From assembly GCA_026398815.1 (NCBI GenBank), contig JAPLSA010000004.1, positions 1 through 64,000 on the forward strand: 64,000 nt of DNA, in the 5' to 3' direction. Both the position numbers and the translations under genes were made by a program. This DNA is from Gammaproteobacteria bacterium. GTDB taxonomy: Bacteria > Pseudomonadota > Gammaproteobacteria > Nevskiales > Nevskiaceae. This document shows positions 47,990 through 59,299 of this stretch, in pieces (positions within the stretch are counted from its first letter, which is position 1; each line of letters starts with the position of its first letter). Below the pieces are notes generated by a model, which saw only the letters and a program-made list of their open reading frames with translations, made no database searches and was not told where the DNA came from.

Positions 47990-50935
47990 TTATTTTCGTG
48001 GGGGATAGCTTCTGTTGTGATTCAGCAAAACCCAAGTAATTGTCGCTTGAGATCTTGATCTCGTCGCCTTGGATTTCTTCTGTCTACGATTTAGCTTCTC
48101 CCGATCGTCGGCAATTCGCACGAACCAAGTGCCTTTTGCTCCCTTCAGTTCGGAAACATTGGTGATACGGCAGATTGCTGTCTTGATCGTCGTCCGATCT
48201 GCGGCTTTCTCTTGGTGCCAAGCATCAATCGGACACTCTGGCAGCAACTCGCGAAGCTGAGCAACCCATTGCCTGGCGTCATCGGGACGCATCGCTGCCC
48301 AATCCGAATCTCCGGTGCGCGCCTTCAGCCAGTCAGCGATCAACTGGTGGAGGATGTTGGGATGCATCCGATACGCATCCTGAAGCTTCGCAAGAAGACG
48401 AGCGGCCGAGTCCCGTTCGGACTGAAGCCGCGGATGTCCGCGACTGATCGCTGGATTCGCGGCGATCAGGTCGTTCAAGGACCGCAACAGCGGCGGCGAT
48501 GTTGCATGGGTGCTTGACGACGGAAGGACCGCGTCAGTGAGGTTGGGCGGCGAAGCCAGAATCGCGATGTTTCCTGGCCGCAAATTGGCGATTCGCAGAA
48601 GTAGTTCCGGTGCGTTATTGGTTTCGATTCGCGTCGTCGGTGCATACCCGAGTAGTGCAAGCAGCTGGGCGGTCTCCTGCCGCATCGGGTGCAGGTAGCG
48701 AGCCGGCTTTCGCGCCTTCGGATCAAAGCATCCGCCCCAGCAGGCGATGTAAAGCAGCAGATCGAAGCCGTGGCAGTAATGCTCGTAAGTCGTCAGTTCC
48801 GATCCATGGCCCAGCATCATCGACAGGGCATTCCCCCGCGCTGCCCTACGATGCAGTTCTCCCGAAATCGCTGCGTCGACGCGCTCGGCTTGTCGGACTG
48901 CCGCTTCCATCCATGGTTCGCGGCTCGGGTGAAATCGTAACCGTAGTTCATTGCCCAACACCCCGATCAGATGCAGCGTGGCTGCGCTGTGGCGCAGGTT
49001 GTGTGCGTGCAGGTTGGCATCGCCCGTCACCCGCTTCAGCAGCAACTTGGCGTGCCCGATCACGGCTGCCGATTCGAAGTCAGTCCGTGTTGGTGGCTGG
49101 TCGAAAAACAGCGCAGCCTCTGGTGCCTTGTCGCGACCGAGTTCCTGAATAGCGTTGAGGACCTCGGCATCCAGCGCGTCTATGGGCAGGACCCGCCGAG
49201 CGTTACCGGTCTTCAGCCCTCGATGGACGTTGCGGCGGATCGTGATCCGCCGCTCATCGATATCCGAGACGGCGAGCCCCAGCATTTCGGATCGACGCAT
49301 GCCGGTTCTGAACGCCAGGCCCCAGTAGGCGATCAACCGATGGCGGGCGACATCGTCCGGCAGCACGATCGACCGGTCCGCGATCATTCGCAGCCCCTGC
49401 AGATACTCCGACCCGATGATGATCCGGCTGCTGATGCGGTAATCAGCGCTACTGAATCCCGGTAACTCAACTTTCGGAAGCGAGGGCAGGTGGTGCGTGC
49501 GGACGTATCGATCGAATGACAGCAGTGCGGCCATGATCCGCCCGGTCTGCTCGGCCGATCGCCGGCTCTGGATCACTTCGACATAAGCGTCTTCCAGCGC
49601 ATCCGCATCGACCAGTGACAGGCTCGGCGGCAACTGGACCAGCAGCCGATTGACGATCAGTCCACGGTAGTGGCGCACGGATCCGTCGGCGAGCATTCGC
49701 CCTTTGTTGCTCCTCTGGAACGCGAGGTACTGCAGCCACGAGACGATGAGGAACGCACTTTCCGATTCCGTGCCCTCGCTGCGCAGTCGATCGACGATCG
49801 CGCCGAGCCCGGCTCCCCAGGTCCCGCGCGGCCCATCCATCACCCGTCTCAGTTCGACGATCAGGCCGCGCTCGTCCAGTTCCCCAGCAGTCAGCTGTTC
49901 CTGAAGATCCTGGTCCCCACCCGGATCGATGCCGGATAGGCCGGCGTCCTGCGTGTAGTCGCTTACTGTTTCCGGTGCCGGCGATTCGGTCGCTGCCAAC
50001 GGCCGGCATCCGATGAGTCGCGCCCAGGTGCCGGGCTCGAGTGAGGAACTGGCGACGTCGCCGCGGGCATAACTGGCCAGCAGCGGCATCGTCACCAGCT
50101 GCAGACGCTGGACCGCGCTGGTGCAGAGCTGGTCGAGCGACGCCATCCAGGCCGGATCCTGCTCGAGGATCATCGTCTGCTGAAAGGCCATGAACGACGA
50201 TCGGGCGAGGCTCCGGTAAAAGGCGTTGCGACGGCCTGCCTTGGCGTTCGGCGCCGGACGTGGCAGTGCGGCGGCGTGATCCTTTGCGATCAGCCAGGCT
50301 GCCAAGGTCGCCGGATCAAGCAGCACGCGGCGCAACTGTGCACGGCCTCCGGCACTCAGTGTGATGTCCAGCCATGCCCAATGCCGGGCAATCGCAGGCT
50401 TCGCCCCCGCCGAGAGTGCATGGGCCATCTCGCCCAGCAAGGCCGTCGCCCCCTGTCCAAGGCGCACAACCAGCAGGGCCAGCAGCCGCCCCAGCGATTC
50501 CCGTGCGAAGTTCGCGTCAGGTTCAGGAGGAGCAGATCGGAGGCTGGATCCCGGCCTGAAGTCCAGGATGTGGCGCTCAAGGGCAAGATCGAAGGCTTCA
50601 AGCGCGACGAGATCCGCCCCGACGGTCCGTGCGATCGTCGAACGGTTCTCCGCTGGATTCAGGAAAAGCCGCTTCGGAGTCGCCGGATCGACCTCCCGCA
50701 TGCGGGTCTGCAGTTGGGTCAGCGCTGCAATGCGCAGGGCGTGGTCGATCTTGGGGTTGGCGAGCGCCGCGATCGCAGCGCGCATGACCCGGTCGCCGCC
50801 GGCATTCGCCGGATCGGTCAGCACCTCCGGCGTGCGTTCCGTGATCCGGGTCAGCGTCTGCAGCATCAGCCGATGCGCCTGCCGGACGATCTCCGGCGCA
50901 TCGGCAGGCGGCGAATCCCAGAGGCCGTGAATCAT
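47990..50935 (-). CDS. Giant tyrosine-recombinase-like protein of a recombinase trio (981 aa)
   Basis: 981 aa. A C-terminal-half catalytic domain carries Arg in AFRTGMRRSEMLGL, Lys near RGLKTGNARRVLPI, HxxR in HAHNLRHSAATLHL, the second His in LGHGSELTTYEHY and the Tyr in the same block. The roughly 550 residues before it are not recognisable, and about 200 more follow the catalytic domain. Typical integrases are 300-450 aa. The start overlaps the upstream gene by 4 bp (ATGA). With 50932 and 53577 it forms a three-gene unit at the island end, probably a self-contained mobility module; partner proteins may act as one complex. Confidence 0.78.
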   Translation of the reverse strand: MIHGLWDSPPADAPEIVRQAHRLMLQTLTRITERTPEVLTDPANAGGDRVMRAAIAALANPKIDHALRIAALTQLQTRMREVDPATPKRLFLNPAENRSTIARTVGADLVALEAFDLALERHILDFRPGSSLRSAPPEPDANFARESLGRLLALLVVRLGQGATALLGEMAHALSAGAKPAIARHWAWLDITLSAGGRAQLRRVLLDPATLAAWLIAKDHAAALPRPAPNAKAGRRNAFYRSLARSSFMAFQQTMILEQDPAWMASLDQLCTSAVQRLQLVTMPLLASYARGDVASSSLEPGTWARLIGCRPLAATESPAPETVSDYTQDAGLSGIDPGGDQDLQEQLTAGELDERGLIVELRRVMDGPRGTWGAGLGAIVDRLRSEGTESESAFLIVSWLQYLAFQRSNKGRMLADGSVRHYRGLIVNRLLVQLPPSLSLVDADALEDAYVEVIQSRRSAEQTGRIMAALLSFDRYVRTHHLPSLPKVELPGFSSADYRISSRIIIGSEYLQGLRMIADRSIVLPDDVARHRLIAYWGLAFRTGMRRSEMLGLAVSDIDERRITIRRNVHRGLKTGNARRVLPIDALDAEVLNAIQELGRDKAPEAALFFDQPPTRTDFESAAVIGHAKLLLKRVTGDANLHAHNLRHSAATLHLIGVLGNELRLRFHPSREPWMEAAVRQAERVDAAISGELHRRAARGNALSMMLGHGSELTTYEHYCHGFDLLLYIACWGGCFDPKARKPARYLHPMRQETAQLLALLGYAPTTRIETNNAPELLLRIANLRPGNIAILASPPNLTDAVLPSSSTHATSPPLLRSLNDLIAANPAISRGHPRLQSERDSAARLLAKLQDAYRMHPNILHQLIADWLKARTGDSDWAAMRPDDARQWVAQLRELLPECPIDAWHQEKAADRTTIKTAICRITNVSELKGAKGTWFVRIADDREKLNRRQKKSKATRSRSQATITWVLLNHNRSYPPRK

Positions 50936-53577
50936 CTGAGCCCTTGGTCAATCCACAGCGGCATGAACCCGACGGACTTGAGCATCCGGGTGACCGCGCC
51001 CCGCGCAACCCCGTGCTGCCGCATCATCGGGTAGGTCGACAGCGGATCATGCGGTGACACCCCATCGAACCAATGCCCCATGAAGACGTCGACGTCCTCA
51101 GCGGTCAGCTTCGGGTCGCGCGCCAGTTCGGTCCTGACGAATCGTCGCAGCGCGTAAAGCTCCAGATCGAAGAATTCGCTGCACAGCGTGACAAAGTGCT
51201 GGGGCCGGAATGCTTCAAACCTATTGTTTTCAATATCGAAATGCCGGAACGGCACGTTCTGCATCGGATGTTGCCGGTCACATTCATTCAGATACTGCGA
51301 GTAGCGAAGCAGGTGTTCGGACAGCGCGTCGGGGAGGACGTTGATGCGCTGGTGGTATTCGGTCCGCGCCTTGTCCAGGAAGGTCACGACCGGCAGCCGT
51401 CCGGTGCCGCTTGCGAATTCATGGATGTGTGGCTTAACCACCGGCCGCATGCCCAGCCCCAGCACGCACCCGAGCCAGGTGTAGGCGGTGTAGTGGTCGT
51501 GACGCTGCGGGCGATCGAGCCTGAACATCCGATCCCGCAGCGTGGCAATCAGCGTCCGTACCGCATCGACGGTCGGAACCCGTCGCGCGCCATTAGCGCC
51601 AGCCTTGCCGGGTCCGTCTTTTTCCGTCGGGTTTCGGCGATTGGCTTTCTGGGTCAAGCCGTCCGCCCGCCATGCGCGCTGGTACGCGGCCTGAAGAACA
51701 TCGGTGGTGTAGTACGCGTAGTGCGCGACGCTCTCCGAATGGGAATGAGCGCGGCCGCTGATCAATCTCGCGATCCCGATATCCCCGTTGTTCGTCGACA
51801 GCAGCCGATGAAAGAGGAAGTTCGCGCATGAGGACATGACCTGATCCGCAGCCCCGAGCTGCTGCTCGGTCCAGCGAATGATCGATGTCTCTCTGGATTG
51901 TGTCAGGCGCCCGACTGGCTGCTTCCCTGCCTCGATGTCGAAGTGCTGCAACAGGGCTGCGAATTCGGTCTGATCATCGAGCACGACCGTGTCGGATCGG
52001 CATCGCTCGCTGCGAGCCGGTGGCATGTCGATCCACGCCGTCGCCGGTGCAGGCACCAGCCATTGCCGCGTTGCGACCACGTAGCGGATCCGCTCATCCG
52101 TCTCATCAAGATCCGGCATCTCGGCGGCGACAAAGAGCCGGCATCCTTCCCTGAACGGGCGGCCCGTGGCGATCGCCGCGTGCAGGCATGTCAGTGCTCG
52201 GGCGTCCTCGCTGTCTGAGGGGACGCGCATCATCGCAACCAGAAGCTGGTGAACGGCTCGCTGTTCGAGTCGGGCCGGGGTCAGTCGATGCGCGTAGTGA
52301 AACCGTCGACGCTGATCTTGCGCCCATCGCGTGGTGTTGCCCGCTGCCACGCCATGACGTCGACGCGCATGCGATTCGTCGAGCGTCGATTCAGCGAGGT
52401 TGACGAACTCGATGCTGCCGTCGGCAATCGACTCGCCCACAGGTAGCCACTCCTGCCCGTCGAGTTCTTCCTCGGCGAGCGCGAGGGCTTCCTTTTCAGA
52501 GAGCTCTCCAGGACGTCGTCTTCTTGCGGGCGTCTCCTCATCATTGAAGTGAGTGGCCAGCAACTCGAGCCGCTCATCGATCAACTCTTTGGCGCGCCCC
52601 TTGGCATCAATTGGCCTCGGAGAAAATGACTCGACCACGAGGTTGGCATCCGTGGATTCTTCGATGGCAATAGCCGGGCTTTCTGAAACCCGGACGTAAC
52701 CGTCAGCAAAGGTCCTGCGCGCCTCCCCCCGACGCACGTCGGCTGATGCAGCGGCCGCGGTGCGGGTGTTCCAATCGCCCGGACGTCGCCATCCCGGGAC
52801 AACGTCCTCAAGCAACAGACAGAGCGCGCTGACGTGTTTGTGGTTGTCCTCGCGGACATCTTTTTTCATCAGGCGCTGCAGGCGCAGGTGATATCGCCGG
52901 CCATCAGAAGCGCCTGCCAACGCATCGAAGAGCGGCCGGAACTCCGGCAGCGTCATCCGGCGGATGACCCGTGACGCCGCGGCGATGCGCCCCCCGAGAT
53001 ATTTCTGGGAATATGGCTGTCTTGATGGAACGGTGTCCGATTTCCACCAGTCGTCACAGAACTGCCGGTAGCGTGCTGTCGTCGCGGTCGACTGCGCGGC
53101 AATGACATGCATCGTGAAAACGTCCATCAGCCGCTCGTATGCTGCGGCATCCTCGTTCCCGCCCAGTTCGTCCGGCGGGATGCAATAGAACATGAGTGGC
53201 CAGAGGTGGCTGGCCGACAGGCAGTAGCCGGCAAGCGGATGCCGTTCCGATAATGACAGCCTCGCCATGGGCAGCATCCGAGGATCACTGACGGCCCAGC
53301 TCTGCTCATCGATCCACTCGATCAGCGACGCGATCTCTGCGACAAGCTGGCCGGGATCAAGTCGCGATCCCGGCACGATTCGCAGGCAGTATTCAAGTTC
53401 GTCGCCGGCGCGCTCGAGGCAGCCGCGAACGCGACGGAGACCGTCCTGCAGGTAGCGAAGGTCGGGCAACAAGCTGAGCTGGGCAGCGAGAACCCACGGG
53501 TCGAAGGACGAGCGCCTTGACCGCCGATAGTCGTCGACCAGCTGGTCGAGCGGCATCGCCGTCAAGGCCCTTGGCAT
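50932..53577 (-). CDS. Second giant recombinase-like protein (881 aa)
   Basis: 881 aa. Near the C-terminus GCVLGLGMRPVVKPHI (Arg), LDKARTEYHQRINVL (Lys-like), LYALRRFVRTEL (Arg, with the usual His of HxxR replaced) and VFMGHWFDGVSPHDPLSTY (His...Tyr) follow the order of a degenerate tyrosine recombinase. The large N-terminal region is unrecognised. Probably a non-canonical or regulatory partner of the 981-aa protein. Coupled on both sides: 1-bp overlap upstream, 4-bp overlap downstream. Confidence 0.62.
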   Translation of the reverse strand: MPRALTAMPLDQLVDDYRRSRRSSFDPWVLAAQLSLLPDLRYLQDGLRRVRGCLERAGDELEYCLRIVPGSRLDPGQLVAEIASLIEWIDEQSWAVSDPRMLPMARLSLSERHPLAGYCLSASHLWPLMFYCIPPDELGGNEDAAAYERLMDVFTMHVIAAQSTATTARYRQFCDDWWKSDTVPSRQPYSQKYLGGRIAAASRVIRRMTLPEFRPLFDALAGASDGRRYHLRLQRLMKKDVREDNHKHVSALCLLLEDVVPGWRRPGDWNTRTAAAASADVRRGEARRTFADGYVRVSESPAIAIEESTDANLVVESFSPRPIDAKGRAKELIDERLELLATHFNDEETPARRRRPGELSEKEALALAEEELDGQEWLPVGESIADGSIEFVNLAESTLDESHARRRHGVAAGNTTRWAQDQRRRFHYAHRLTPARLEQRAVHQLLVAMMRVPSDSEDARALTCLHAAIATGRPFREGCRLFVAAEMPDLDETDERIRYVVATRQWLVPAPATAWIDMPPARSERCRSDTVVLDDQTEFAALLQHFDIEAGKQPVGRLTQSRETSIIRWTEQQLGAADQVMSSCANFLFHRLLSTNNGDIGIARLISGRAHSHSESVAHYAYYTTDVLQAAYQRAWRADGLTQKANRRNPTEKDGPGKAGANGARRVPTVDAVRTLIATLRDRMFRLDRPQRHDHYTAYTWLGCVLGLGMRPVVKPHIHEFASGTGRLPVVTFLDKARTEYHQRINVLPDALSEHLLRYSQYLNECDRQHPMQNVPFRHFDIENNRFEAFRPQHFVTLCSEFFDLELYALRRFVRTELARDPKLTAEDVDVFMGHWFDGVSPHDPLSTYPMMRQHGVARGAVTRMLKSVGFMPLWIDQGLR

Positions 53578-54107
53578 CAGTCCTCCCGAACCAATGGTGT
53601 CCCACCCCGGCGGCTTCGTCGTGTGGTCAGACCTTCGATACCCGCGGCGCGGAGTTCCCGCTTCCCGTCGCGCTGCTGTCGATACGTAACGCGGCCGAAC
53701 AGCAGCGGCACGACGAGTTCCTCGACCTTCTGAAACAGTTCCAGCCAGGGGGTATCGGCATCGACGACAACGACGCGGACTTTCCTGTCGCGGTACCGGC
53801 TACCGGGCCGCCTTGACAGTTCGACGAGCCAGTCTAGGACCGCGACATTGCCGATACACTCGTATCGGCCGCCGCTTGTGCACCGAACGATGATCGGGCG
53901 CAGCACTTCGATCACGCCGAGTGCGTCGCTGCCGGGATCGATATCCGGTCTTCGCGTGAGCGTCGGCGCTGCCGGAACGCCAGGCGGGCGATCGATGAGG
54001 GTCAATGCGACCGTTCGGGTCATGCTCGCGGGACTGCATCGCGCCGCAGCCTGTTTCTTTCTGGGAACCGAGGGCAGGGATGTCGTCATTGGGCAGATTG
54101 TGCACAA
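53577..54107 (-). CDS. Small ParB-like protein of the recombinase trio
   Basis: 176 aa. The segment GVIEVLRPIIVRCTSGGRYECIGNVAVLDWLVEL resembles the VRPI.V...YE.I.G..R..A core of ParB/Srx N-terminal domains, but is short. The remainder (VRVVVVDADTPWLELFQKVEELVVPLLFG) is not recognised. First gene of the trio, its stop sharing one base with the next start. It may guide the recombinases to their site; that is inference. Confidence 0.5.
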   Translation of the reverse strand: MCTICPMTTSLPSVPRKKQAAARCSPASMTRTVALTLIDRPPGVPAAPTLTRRPDIDPGSDALGVIEVLRPIIVRCTSGGRYECIGNVAVLDWLVELSRRPGSRYRDRKVRVVVVDADTPWLELFQKVEELVVPLLFGRVTYRQQRDGKRELRAAGIEGLTTRRSRRGGTPLVRED

Positions 54108-54534: not shown

Positions 54535-55509
54535 ATGGACTTGCCAGCGTCATCCGATCTGAAATCGATCCTGCATTCCAAGCGGGCCAACATCTACTAC
54601 TTGCAGCACTGTCGGGTGCTCGTCAACGGCGGCCGGGTGGAGTATGTGACCGACGAGGGACGACAGTCCCGCTACTGGAACATTCCGATCGCCAATACGA
54701 CGACGGTGTTGCTCGGTACGGGAACCTCGGTCACCCAGGCCGCCATGCGGGAGTTGGCTAAAGCCGGGGTGCTGGTGGGCTTCTGCGGTGGCGGAGGAAC
54801 GCCGCTGTACTCCGCGAACGAGGTGGATATCGACGTCGCCTGGTTTTCGCCGCAGAGCGAATATCGACCGACGGAGTACTTGCAACGCTGGATGCGATTC
54901 TGGTTCGACGATGCACGGCGGCTGGCTGCTGCCCGGGCGTTCCAGAAAGCGCGGCTGGAGAGGATTGGACAGGCGTGGTCGAGCCGTCCGTTGGTCGAGG
55001 CCGGGTTCGAGGTGGATGTCGATAGTCTCCAGCGCGCGATCCAGGCATCCAAGGCTCATCTGGATGCGGCCCCTGACACCGTCTGCCTGCTGACCGAGGA
55101 AGCCCGCCTGAGCAAGCAGTTGTACCTGTTCGCGGCGCGTGCGAGCCGTTACGGCGAATTCACTCGTGCCAAACGGGGCAGTGGCACCGATCCGGCCAAT
55201 CGCTTCCTCGATCACGGCAACTACCTCGCTTATGGCCTCGCGGCGACCGCCACCTGGGTGCTCGGTCTGCCACACGGCTTGGCGGTCTTGCACGGCAAGA
55301 CCCGCCGGGGCGGGCTGGTGTTCGATGTCGCCGATCTGGTCAAGGATGCGGCGATCCTGCCGCAGGCGTTCCTGTCTGCGGTTCGTGGCGATGACGAGCA
55401 GGAATTCCGTAGCGCCTGCATCGACAGCCTGACGCGCAGCGAATCGCTTGATTTCATGATCGACACGGTCAAGGCCGTGGCGGACGAGATCGGAGCCGAA
55501 CCAGCGTGA
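54535..55509 (+). CDS. cas1: Type I-F CRISPR integrase Cas1
   Basis: 324 aa Cas1f. DLKSILHSKRANIYYLQHCRVLVNGGRVEYVTDEG is the I-F specific N-terminus. The metal-binding triad is Glu in LTEEARLSKQLY, His in GLPHGLAVLHGKTRRGG and Asp in GGLVFDVADLVKD. It integrates new spacers together with the Cas2 domain of the fused Cas2-3. ATG 54535 follows GGAG. The stop overlaps the cas2-3 start as GTGA, so the two are coupled. First cas gene after the island border. Confidence 0.97.
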   Translation: MDLPASSDLKSILHSKRANIYYLQHCRVLVNGGRVEYVTDEGRQSRYWNIPIANTTTVLLGTGTSVTQAAMRELAKAGVLVGFCGGGGTPLYSANEVDIDVAWFSPQSEYRPTEYLQRWMRFWFDDARRLAAARAFQKARLERIGQAWSSRPLVEAGFEVDVDSLQRAIQASKAHLDAAPDTVCLLTEEARLSKQLYLFAARASRYGEFTRAKRGSGTDPANRFLDHGNYLAYGLAATATWVLGLPHGLAVLHGKTRRGGLVFDVADLVKDAAILPQAFLSAVRGDDEQEFRSACIDSLTRSESLDFMIDTVKAVADEIGAEPA

Positions 55510-58878: not shown

Positions 58879-58958
58879 CCGCGTTGCTGCCTTTTCGGCA
58901 GTGGAAAGTCACTTTGGCCACCAGCAACTACTTCTGAGCTGCCTATGCGGCAGTGGTT
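58879..58958 (-). ncRNA. Candidate Cas-regulating RNA (CreR-like mini-CRISPR)
   Basis: Read leftward, 58958-58931 is a degenerate I-F repeat (23 of 28 positions identical to the array repeat, differing at positions 1, 2, 3, 13 and 28) with stem CTGCC/GGCAG and the handle CTCAGAAG intact. A 24-nt spacer follows at 58930-58907. Then a second, more eroded repeat at 58906-58879 keeps CACTGCC-GAAAA-GGCAGC. Both loops keep G and A at the ends. Cas6f could cut both to give a short crRNA. The spacer matches a site at 59077-59100 at 19 of 24 positions. I cannot identify its promoter with certainty. Known CreR RNAs autorepress cas operons; a type I-F case is inferred here from sequence. Confidence 0.75.
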
Positions 58959-58991
58959 GTTCTGCGACGGTCCAGCGATCAAGCCGCCCGC

Positions 58992-59032
58992 CCTCCGGCG
59001 CCGTCTATGACGCAGAGGCTAGGCGACGGAGG
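58992..59032. repeat. GC-rich hairpin between cas2-3 and the csy promoter
   Basis: CCTCCGGCGCC (58992-59002) pairs with GGCGACGGAGG (59022-59032) at 10 of 11 positions. It may end cas1-cas2-3 transcripts or lie in the 5' part of the leftward CreR-like transcript. No T-run follows. Confidence 0.4.
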
Positions 59033-59076
59033 TTGCCAAAAGATTCTTCGGGGTGTACCGTCTTGGTGCTGAATTC

Positions 59077-59112
59077 TGTCACTTTGACTAACAGTAACTA
59101 GGTTAAAAATCT
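59077..59112 (+). promoter_or_regulatory. csy operon promoter overlapped by the CreR-like target site
   Basis: TTGACT at 59084-59089 is a good -35; an A/T-rich stretch (59103-59112) is the likely -10 region, though weak. The minus strand of 59077-59100 is the protospacer: TAGTTACTG at its start, AAAGTGAC near its end, with CC immediately 5' (GG at 59101-59102 on plus). That is the I-F PAM. The mismatches to the spacer are at positions 6, 10, 12, 14 and 24. Binding of a Csy complex here would cover the -35 and the spacer of the promoter. Confidence 0.7.
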
Positions 59113-59118
59113 TAAAAC

Positions 59119-59148
59119 CTCCCGGCAAGACGGACATCTCGCCGGGAG
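59119..59148. repeat. Hairpin 1 in the csy 5' leader
   Basis: CTCCCGGC / GCCGGGAG, 8-bp arms. On the minus strand it is followed by GTTTTAAGATTTTT, so it resembles a terminator for leftward transcription; on the plus strand it sits right after the presumed transcription start of csy1. Confidence 0.5.
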
Positions 59149-59271
59149 ACGCAACGTCGAGCTTGTGAGGCCGACCCCTAACCCCGAGGGACTGTCGCGG
59201 GATGGAGGATAGAGATATGGCTGGCCGCCATATGACGAGAAGATAAGGATCGTCACCGGTGCTTTTGTCAT

Positions 59272-59299
59272 ATCCCTGGAGCAACGTTGCTCCAGGGAT
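59272..59299. promoter_or_regulatory. 28-bp perfect palindrome upstream of csy1
   Basis: ATCCCTGGAGCAAC immediately followed by its reverse complement, 14-bp arms and no spacer, 40 bp before the csy1 start. A second inverted repeat GTTTCA/TGAAAC lies at 59308-59327 next to the ribosome binding site. There is no T-run, so a dimeric-protein operator or an RNA hairpin affecting translation is more likely than a terminator. Confidence 0.6.

What the first reader, a model, noticed from the sequence alone, without database searches (positions are those of the whole stretch)
58879..59102. A CreR-like mini-CRISPR predicted to autorepress a type I-F csy operon
The gap between cas2-3 and csy1 holds, on the minus strand, two degenerate copies of the array repeat (58931-58958, 23/28 identical; 58879-58906, stem conserved) around a 24-nt spacer (58907-58930). 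The spacer matches minus strand 59077-59100 at 19/24, with an exact 5'-CC PAM directly adjacent. Spacer positions 1-5 and 7-9 (seed) match, and mismatches are at 6, 10, 12, 14 and 24. In type I-F complexes Cas7f flips out every sixth base, so 6 and 12 do not matter. The target overlaps a TTGACT -35 element upstream of csy1. CreR RNAs with degenerate repeats and partial promoter complementarity are established for types I-B, I-E and V-A; I am not aware of this arrangement being described in I-F. The short spacer and partial match would allow binding without target destruction.
Basis: partly seen in the sequence, partly recalled or inferred. Interest (0 to 1): 0.92.

Follow-up and report, generated by a model that had tools for sequence, protein, structure and literature searches.

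The report
CRISPR-repressed RNA toxin in type I-F
Next to its CRISPR genes this bacterium carries a tiny built-in guide that probably silences a tiny RNA poison rather than the CRISPR genes, and the same pair, with a shared and apparently undescribed toxin design, recurs in many other bacteria.

Summary
In detail: a degenerate two-repeat mini-CRISPR on the minus strand, with a 24-nt spacer matching a CC-PAM site 146 nt away at 19/24. It is not chance: in a sister genome all four spacer changes are mirrored in the target. The interpretation needs changing. Between target and csy1 lies a 10-codon mini-ORF with a strong Shine-Dalgarno site, its start codon in a hairpin, two adjacent rare AGA codons and a downstream stem-loop. 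That is the anatomy of creTA (CRISPR-regulated toxin-antitoxin), already shown experimentally in the same cas3-csy1 gap of Acinetobacter type I-F loci. So the guide is most likely the antitoxin CreA, and its target the promoter region of an RNA toxin, CreT; autorepression of csy is at most a side effect. What looks new is the toxin. In 29 of 123 loci a mini-ORF has tandem rare codons (AGA, ATA, TTA) at exactly codons 8-9 (0-2 loci at other positions tested), and 20 of 27 distinct sequences also form the start-codon hairpin. It combines designs known from archaea and Acinetobacter. Expression and toxicity are untested.

The parts
58931..58958 (-). creA psi-R1: degenerate repeat giving the 8-nt 5' handle (CTCAGAAG)
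   Evidence: 23/28 to array repeat; Rfam CRISPR-DR4 28.9 bits, below cut-off
58907..58930 (-). creA spacer (psi-S), 24 nt
   Evidence: 19/24 to 59077-59100 minus with CC PAM; covaries with target in L009/L060
58879..58906 (-). creA psi-R2: second degenerate repeat, hairpin kept, giving the 3' handle
   Evidence: 17/28, stem arms CTGCC/GGCAG intact
59077..59100 (-). target (protospacer) of CreA
59101..59102 (-). PAM 5'-CC (GG on plus strand)
59084..59117 (+). probable core promoter of creT, AT-rich; -35/-10 not resolved
   Evidence: conserved in L060 except TTGACT; no hit in promoter scan on +: inference
59119..59148 (+). 5' hairpin of CreT RNA (CTCCCGGC...GCCGGGAG)
   Evidence: fold; a hairpin of at least 6 bp in this part of 24 of 26 loci (no shuffle control); the script found none in the sister (loop limit 15), where by eye TTCCGGA/TCCGGAA pair around a 16-nt loop
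59204..59208 (+). Shine-Dalgarno GGAGG, 8 nt before ATG
59215..59233 (+). start-codon hairpin AUAUGGC-UGGCC-GCCAUAU
   Evidence: fold; family test
59217..59246 (+). creT mini-ORF ATG GCT GGC CGC CAT ATG ACG AGA AGA TAA
59238..59243 (+). tandem rare codons AGA AGA (codons 8-9)
   Evidence: AGA 1.73 per mille in window ORFs
59272..59299 (+). 3' stem-loop of CreT RNA, 12 bp, no U-tract
   Evidence: scan calls no terminator there
54535..55509 (+). cas1f
   Evidence: TIGR03637 505 bits
55506..58820 (+). cas2-3f
   Evidence: TIGR02562 1293 bits
59340..60689 (+). csy1 (cas8f)
   Evidence: TIGR02564 392.6 bits
60494..61654 (+). csy2 (ORF as listed; true start further in)
   Evidence: PF09614
61482..62699 (+). 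csy3 (ORF as listed; true start further in)
   Evidence: TIGR02566
62703..63269 (+). csy4 (cas6f)
   Evidence: TIGR02563
63399..64000 (+). type I-F CRISPR array (continues beyond the window, to near the contig end)

Best explanation
The mini-array is creA, the antitoxin half of a type I-F creTA module. SHOWN here by sequence: the guide anatomy, a co-evolving PAM-flanked target, and a divergent small gene downstream of the target with the marks of a CreT RNA. INFERRED: CreA RNA is cut by Csy4, loads the Csy complex and sits on the creT promoter region without recruiting Cas2-3 cleavage, because the 24-nt guide makes too short an R-loop. If the Csy complex is lost by mutation, transposon insertion or an anti-CRISPR, creT is transcribed. 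Its RNA recruits ribosomes through a strong SD and a start codon set in a hairpin. They translate seven codons and stall at AGA-AGA, tying up the scarce tRNA-Arg(UCU) and ribosomes, so growth stops. The cell is thereby addicted to its CRISPR effector. Since the 3' stem-loop lacks a U-tract, creT transcripts may read into csy1-4, so mild autoregulation of csy could be a by-product. The confidence given is for the module being creTA; for the tRNA-trapping step alone I would say about 0.55.
For: Same gap, orientation and element order as the tested Acinetobacter WCHA45 module (PMC10097628, parts 1-3 of 8 read: two psi-R, 20-nt psi-S, CC PAM, divergent 33-bp mini-ORF with SD, AUG in a 5-bp stem). 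Spacer-target covariation with the sister genome, 4 of 4. Mini-ORF with SD and a 4-bp start-codon hairpin in 23 of 40 target-to-csy1 regions against 0.67 expected from dinucleotide shuffles. In those 23, codons under 5 per mille sit at codon 8 (18/23) and 9 (20/22), at most 3/23 elsewhere. Reverse test: SD + start + rare codons at 8-9 found in 29 of 123 loci, against 0-2 loci at every other codon pair from 2-3 to 13-14. Of 27 distinct ones 20 form the full 4-bp hairpin, position 1-15 being G-C in 19 and A-T in 6; 0 of 2000 permutations reach this. A 3' stem-loop was found in 27 of 27 examined, two of them weak (no shuffle control). AGA 1.73 per mille, in-frame AGA-AGA once in 13887 codons. One tRNA-Arg(UCU) among the 42 tRNA hits.
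Against: Nothing is shown to be transcribed, processed or toxic. In the only I-F CreT whose mechanism I read about (WCHA45) each codon was changed synonymously and loss of toxicity is reported for codons 2, 3 and 5, so the tandem rare codons need not act in trapping tRNA. In the archaeal CreT the AGA pair follows the start codon directly; here it is at codons 8-9. The promoter scan found no site for creT or creA. The creA RNA does not fold better than shuffles and its best fold does not show the psi-R1 hairpin. 13 of the 36 well-supported mini-array loci lack a CreT-like ORF by my rules, so mini-arrays in this gap also serve other ends. The assembly is incomplete (no 23S found; no tRNA-Ile(GAU), His or Trp among the 42), so a second tRNA-Arg(UCU) cannot be excluded.
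Confidence: 0.8

Rival explanations
1. CreR-type autorepressor: the guide represses transcription of csy1-4 itself, tuning effector level to crRNA supply and anti-CRISPRs; the mini-ORF is only a leader.
For: Target lies upstream of csy1; the 3' stem-loop has no U-tract in this locus and only 5 of 27 family members examined have a U-rich tail, so read-through into csy1 is plausible. Short-gap relatives (L048, L051, L100, L120, L127) have guide and target but less than 90 nt between target and csy1, too little for a CreT of this kind, so CreR-like use probably does exist in I-F.
Against: It does not explain the conserved SD, start-codon hairpin, codons 8-9 and stem-loop, nor the long gap: in 23 of the 25 genome-search loci without any repeat-like element the measured cas3-csy1 gap is 128 nt or less (exceptions L016, 179, and L032, 551).
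Confidence: 0.12
2. A narrower version of the best explanation: creTA, but CreT kills only through its initiation hairpin (loop pairing with 23S rRNA and blocking initiation, as proposed for WCHA45); the tandem rare codons are a minor feature.
For: Same hairpin geometry; loop position 5 is Y in 20, position 6 U in 24, position 8 R in 26 and position 9 C in 25 of 27 sequences, against loop nt 5-9 proposed to pair near 23S G502 in PMC10097628, where codons 2, 3 and 5 were the ones reported as needed.
Against: Strict placement of the rarest codons at 8-9, with three different codon types (AGA, ATA, TTA), is hard to explain without tRNA demand. 23S of this genome was not found in the assembly, so pairing was not tested.
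Confidence: 0.25
3. CrePA-like module: the guide represses a peptide or protein toxin.
For: Some relatives seem, by eye, to have a longer small ORF in the gap instead (L044, L052).
Against: Here the ORF has 9 sense codons; between the two sister genomes the peptide changes (G3D, R4H) while SD, start codon, AGA pair and most of the stem stay; across the family residues 8-9 are RR, II, LL or mixed.
Confidence: 0.04
4. Decayed remnant of an array or chance resemblance without function.
For: Repeats are degenerate; 17/28 alone is at chance level in the window; creA RNA folds no better than shuffles.
Against: Compensatory spacer-target changes, every-sixth-base mismatch pattern in 36 loci, repeat-like elements before csy1 in 59 of 124 loci.
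Confidence: 0.02

Closest known systems
Type I-F CreTA of Acinetobacter sp. WCHA45 / LoGeW2-3 / ANC3789 (Wang et al. 2023, PMC10097628; parts 1-3 of 8 of the text read)
   Same: cas3-csy1 gap of ~400 bp, two degenerate repeats, short psi-S, CC PAM, divergent mini-ORF of similar length (33 bp there, 30 bp here) with strong SD, start codon paired in a hairpin whose 3' arm holds codon 5 (CAT)
   Different: Here codons 8-9 are AGA AGA, a 3' stem-loop and 5' hairpin frame the ORF, psi-S is 24 nt rather than 20, the host is a GC-rich bacterium of the Nevskiaceae; the paper reports toxicity through hairpin and initiation signals, not rare tRNA. I did not see the WCHA45 sequence itself
Haloarchaeal type I-B CreT (H. 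hispanica AGA-AGA; H. hubeiense AUA-AUA; Cheng et al. 2021, PMC8501985; first part and 12 passages read)
   Same: Strong SD (H. hispanica), start codon, two consecutive rare codons, downstream stem-loop; CRISPR effector as repressor
   Different: Archaeal, type I-B, 4-6 codon ORF with the rare codons close to the start; no start-codon hairpin described in what I read
CreR of types I-B, I-E, V-A (review passages only)
   Same: Degenerate mini-array, partial complementarity near a cas operon
   Different: A CreT-like gene lies between target and cas operon here
Type I-E CreTA of Citrobacter rodentium (PMC12055562; passages)
   Same: Gap between cas3 and the cas8 gene, crRNA-like guide on the opposite strand, small toxin ORF
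   Different: 96-bp ORF without rare codons whose translation is needed; type I-E; number of repeats not checked
CRISPR-derived regulatory mini-arrays (Shmakov et al. 2023, NAR gkad495; title seen in a reference list; content recalled, paper not held)
   Same: Mini-arrays next to cas8, I-F1 case tested, as recalled
   Different: I could not check whether it lists these loci or their mini-ORFs

Membership tests
CreTA (type VIII toxin-antitoxin) | creA with one or two degenerate CRISPR repeats beside a cas locus | tested here: met
CreTA (type VIII toxin-antitoxin) | psi-S partly complementary to a PAM-flanked site at the toxin promoter | tested here: met
   19/24 with CC, covarying; that the site is a promoter is inferred, the scan found none on this strand
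CreTA (type VIII toxin-antitoxin) | creT downstream of the target, divergent from creA, with mini-ORF and strong SD | tested here: met
   59204-59246
CreTA (type VIII toxin-antitoxin) | CreA RNA matured by Cas6/Csy4 at repeat hairpins | tested here: inconclusive
   stem arms kept in both repeats, but the best fold of the RNA alone shows only the psi-R2 hairpin
CreTA (type VIII toxin-antitoxin) | creT RNA is toxic and is repressed by effector plus CreA | not testable with these tools
   needs expression
tRNA-sequestering CreT (haloarchaeal type) | two consecutive codons of a rare tRNA | tested here: met
   AGA AGA; AGA second rarest sense codon in window ORFs; one tRNA-Arg(UCU) found
tRNA-sequestering CreT (haloarchaeal type) | rare codons immediately downstream of the start codon (as stated for H. 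hispanica) | tested here: not met
   codons 8-9
tRNA-sequestering CreT (haloarchaeal type) | stable stem-loop downstream of the mini-ORF | tested here: met
   12-bp stem 59272-59299
WCHA45-type CreT | start codon inside a stem whose other arm holds codon 5 | tested here: met
   AUAUGGC-UGGCC-GCCAUAU; 20 of 27 distinct relatives have the full 4 bp
WCHA45-type CreT | loop nt 5-9 complementary to 23S rRNA | tested here: inconclusive
   23S not found in the assembly
CreR | guide target lies in the promoter of the cas operon with no other gene between | tested here: not met
   creT mini-ORF at 59217-59246 between target and csy1
CreR | removal of the guide raises cas expression | not testable with these tools
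   needs expression
CrePA | repressed gene encodes a protein toxin | tested here: not met
   9 sense codons, peptide not conserved

The most novel reading that the evidence does not exclude
Type I-F loci of Gamma- and Betaproteobacteria carry a broad, so far undescribed family of CRISPR-repressed 'hungry-codon' RNA toxins of one design: 5' hairpin, strong SD, start codon in a 4-bp hairpin with a YUNRC-like loop, the host's rarest codons (AGA, ATA or TTA, interchangeable) doubled at codons 8-9, then a stem-loop. It merges the initiation trap known from Acinetobacter with the rare-tRNA trap known from archaea, and, lying as a leader in front of csy1, lets one guide serve both addiction and autoregulation; loci that lost the toxin keep the guide as a pure regulator.
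Probability: 0.5. Interest if true: 0.78.

Novelty: new variant of a known kind. Interest (0 to 1): 0.62.

Why it matters
CreT toxins are so small and variable that they are hard to predict from sequence (stated in PMC8501985). A rule - rare codon pair at codons 8-9 behind a strong SD, usually with a start-codon hairpin, next to a degenerate mini-array - finds them in 29 of 123 type I-F loci here and makes tRNA or ribosome trapping directly testable by codon swaps. It also means that disabling Csy in such strains, by mutation or by anti-CRISPR proteins, may be self-defeating, which bears on how CRISPR is kept in genomes and on how phages with anti-CRISPRs fare.

Tried and rejected
Chance or array decay: rejected by covariation and the every-sixth-base pattern. 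Rfam: only a sub-threshold CRISPR-DR4 match. 23S pairing of the loop: no 23S found in the assembly. Classical terminator after creT: not found for this locus. A resemblance of the 7-nt loop (U at its second place) to an anticodon loop was noted and not pursued. Reading Shmakov et al. 2023: not held. Literature searched for I-F CreR/CreTA, regulatory mini-arrays and tandem-rare-codon toxins. For tandem-rare-codon CreT I found only the archaeal ones, plus general papers on toxic minigenes (listing; passages of PMC8708949). These searches cover open-licence papers only, so 'undescribed' means not found there.

Rows dropped or chosen: L031 (csy1 fragment) left out of the 124 loci; L060 (duplicate of L009) kept in the 124 and the 50, left out; of 49 non-duplicate mini-array loci, 13 with P above 0.01 or opposite orientation were left out of the 36 (L012, L028, L052, L062, L078, L090, L101, L106, L109, L110, L111, L114, L130). 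One search took those 36, L130, and L012, L028, L062, L090 and L106 added by eye; L051 and L127 fell out as too short, leaving 40. In L035 the automatic hit there is a different ORF from the AGA-AGA one. P values are single-locus, uncorrected, from 300 simple shuffles. mixes automatic and eye-picked ORFs, so the counts rest. One search examined 27 of the 30 mini-ORFs; searches have no shuffle control. The locus pairs for the other covariation counts were picked by me, and their targets had been chosen as best matches, which favours mirrored changes; the window-sister pair is aligned independently. The SD/hairpin/codon rules were written after seeing some of these loci; searches are cross-checks (each picks by one feature and tests the other), not fully independent data.

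Full report
WHAT WAS CHECKED. The locus is a complete type I-F system: cas1, cas2-3, csy1, csy3 and csy4 match their NCBIfam models, csy2 its Pfam model, followed by an array of 28-nt repeats. In 64 kb the next best spacer match is 16/24. With the CC demanded, 0 of 300 shuffles of the 450 nt after psi-R1 do as well. Against: the creA RNA folded alone is no more stable than shuffles (z -0.5; 55 of 200 as good) and its best fold shows the psi-R2 hairpin only.

COVARIATION. Csy1 occurs in 22 of 194 genomes, the own one included; one of the others is in the same genus (G010 = L009 = L060, 'Lysobacteraceae bacterium isolate BC.045'). A member of the same family, G024, has a contig of the same length as that of L105, Hydrocarboniphaga daqingensis, which NCBI places in Nevskiaceae. 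The sister's Csy1 is 90% identical and its gap holds the same module. Its spacer differs from the window's at 4 positions and its target at 5; all 4 spacer changes are matched by the same change in the target, and the fifth target change is at position 24, unpaired in both. My hand estimate for such coincidence without constraint is about 6 in a million (5/10626 for the places, 1/81 for the bases). Ten further pairs of related loci, picked by me, also show mirrored changes, between 2 of 8 and 4 of 5 spacer differences; there the targets were chosen as best matches, which favours this.

WIDER SET. A scan of named genomes returned 80 of 502 Csy1 relatives. Together with the genome-search loci this gave 124 loci, the window itself and one duplicate included. 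59 of 124 have at least one repeat-like element of 18/28 or better within 900 nt before the csy1 match. 50 have a handle-bearing psi-R1; for 36 of the 49 non-duplicates the best CC-flanked target scores P <= 0.01 against shuffles and lies in the usual orientation. In these 36, mismatches fall at position 6 in 31 of 36, 12 in 26 of 36, 18 in 25 of 34, and at positions 1-5 in 0 of 36; towards the far end they rise also elsewhere (position 20 in 15 of 28, 24 in 15 of 22). That is the pattern expected if every sixth base is flipped out of the I-F complex (the structural fact is recalled). So crRNA-like guides beside csy1 are common and real.

WHAT THE GUIDE SILENCES HERE. Between target and csy1 the window has, on the plus strand: a 5' hairpin (59119-59148), GGAGG (59204-59208), a 10-codon ORF (59217-59246; M A G R H M T R R stop) whose start codon is paired in AUAUGGC-UGGCC-GCCAUAU, AGA AGA as its last two sense codons, and a 12-bp stem-loop (59272-59299) without a U-tract. 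The folded stretch is 3.1 standard deviations more stable than shuffles, 1 of 200 being as good. In the sister genome SD, start codon, AGA pair and 3' stem-loop are conserved while codons 3 and 4 change.

This is the anatomy of creT. Wang et al. 2023 (PMC10097628, parts 1-3 of 8) described the same arrangement in the cas3-csy1 gap of three Acinetobacter I-F loci and tested one in depth: CreA has an 8-nt and a 20-nt handle around a 20-nt psi-S, the Csy complex represses creT, Cas1 and Cas3 are not needed, and toxicity needs SD, start codon and a 5-bp hairpin around the start codon. Of the three loci, one toxin showed no effect in their host. Cheng et al. 2021 (PMC8501985, first part and passages) describe archaeal CreT that trap rare tRNAs with two consecutive AGA or AUA codons plus a downstream stem-loop. 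The window's element has the marks of both.

FAMILY TEST. Selecting only by SD and a 4-bp start-codon hairpin finds a mini-ORF in 23 of 40 target-to-csy1 regions, against 0.67 expected from dinucleotide shuffles. In those 23, codons used below 5 per mille in the same locus occur at codon 8 in 18 of 23 and codon 9 in 20 of 22, at most 3 of 23 at any other codon; codons 8 and 9 are identical in 13. Selecting instead only by SD, start and rare codons (AGA, AGG, ATA, TTA, CTA) at 8-9 finds 29 of 123 loci; the same rule at the other codon pairs from 2-3 to 13-14 finds 0 to 2 loci each. 28 of these 29 have a repeat-like element of at least 18/28 upstream, the 29th one of 17/28. Of 27 distinct sequences, 20 form the full 4-bp hairpin; position 1 and position 15 are G-C in 19, A-T in 6, G-T in 1 and A-A in 1; none of 2000 re-deals of the 3' arm equals this. 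In the loop, position 5 is Y in 20, 6 is U in 24, 8 is R in 26 and 9 is C in 25 of 27. A 3' stem-loop was found in the 27 mini-ORFs examined (weak in L090 and L093), a U-rich tail in 5 of 27, and a 5' hairpin in 24 of 26 (the sister missed by the script's loop limit); neither has a shuffle control. Codon pairs are AGA AGA, ATA ATA, TTA TTA or mixtures; in the window's ORFs TTA, AGA and ATA run at 0.58, 1.73 and 2.52 per mille, the first, second and fifth rarest sense codons. tRNA-Arg(UCU) was found once; all 42 tRNA-family hits of the genome lie on stretches run through ARAGORN. The assembly is incomplete (95.59% completeness, no 23S found, no tRNA-Ile(GAU), His or Trp listed), so a second copy is not excluded.

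MECHANISM. Most likely CreA-Csy sits on the creT promoter region. The guide is 24 nt; in a type I-F1 system truncated R-loops bind but do not trigger Cas2/3 (abstract of PMC7296934), so repression without self-cutting is expected. Loss of Csy would free CreT, which loads ribosomes and stalls them at AGA-AGA; short toxic ORFs that deplete a tRNA through peptidyl-tRNA release are known from other systems (passages of PMC8708949). Whether the harm comes from tRNA depletion, from blocked initiation, or both, is not decided by sequence. In the tested Acinetobacter CreT loss of toxicity is reported for synonymous changes at codons 2, 3 and 5; this speaks against a general need for codons 8-9, while their strict placement here speaks for it.

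AUTOREGULATION. It is not excluded: without a clear terminator, creT may be the leader of csy1-4 (inference).

VERDICT. Observation confirmed; CreR reading replaced by CreTA; the module is a new variant of a known kind because of the combined toxin design, seen by the names of the hits in Gamma- and Betaproteobacteria (lineages other than that recalled). All functional steps are inferred.

Noticed in passing
window 47990-54107 (-): Three consecutive ORFs left of cas1 (981, 881, 176 aa); the first has a Phage_integrase domain, the others no Pfam hit. Looks like a tandem recombinase element beside the cas locus (comparison with RIT elements recalled).
   Followed up: partly
L132 (Pokkaliibacter plantistimulans), 261 and 156 nt before the csy1 match: Two creT-like mini-ORFs in series, both with AGA AGA at codons 8-9, behind one mini-array.
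   Followed up: no
L044, L052 (cas3-csy1 gap): Mini-array followed, by eye, by a longer small ORF instead of a CreT-like mini-ORF; possible protein toxin (CrePA-like).
   Followed up: no
L051 (G401): Mini-array with a good target kept beside a csy1 match that carries five in-frame stops: a possibly effector-dead locus that kept its guide and has little room for a toxin.
   Followed up: no
CreT family, 3' stem-loop tail: The downstream stem-loop is followed by ATTCTA or a close variant in many of the loci, the window included, instead of a U-tract; meaning unknown.
   Followed up: no
L077, L090 (Corticibacter populi, Lampropedia aestuarii): A second mini-ORF type, ATG CGT CGA AAA CG. AAA CGT then CGG AGG or AGA AGA, without the standard start-codon hairpin.
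   Followed up: no
own genome G000:C20:55-2662 and G000:C25:63402-65468: Two long arrays with the same repeat, one at the start of C20 and one at the end of C25; two arrays or two ends of one.
   Followed up: no
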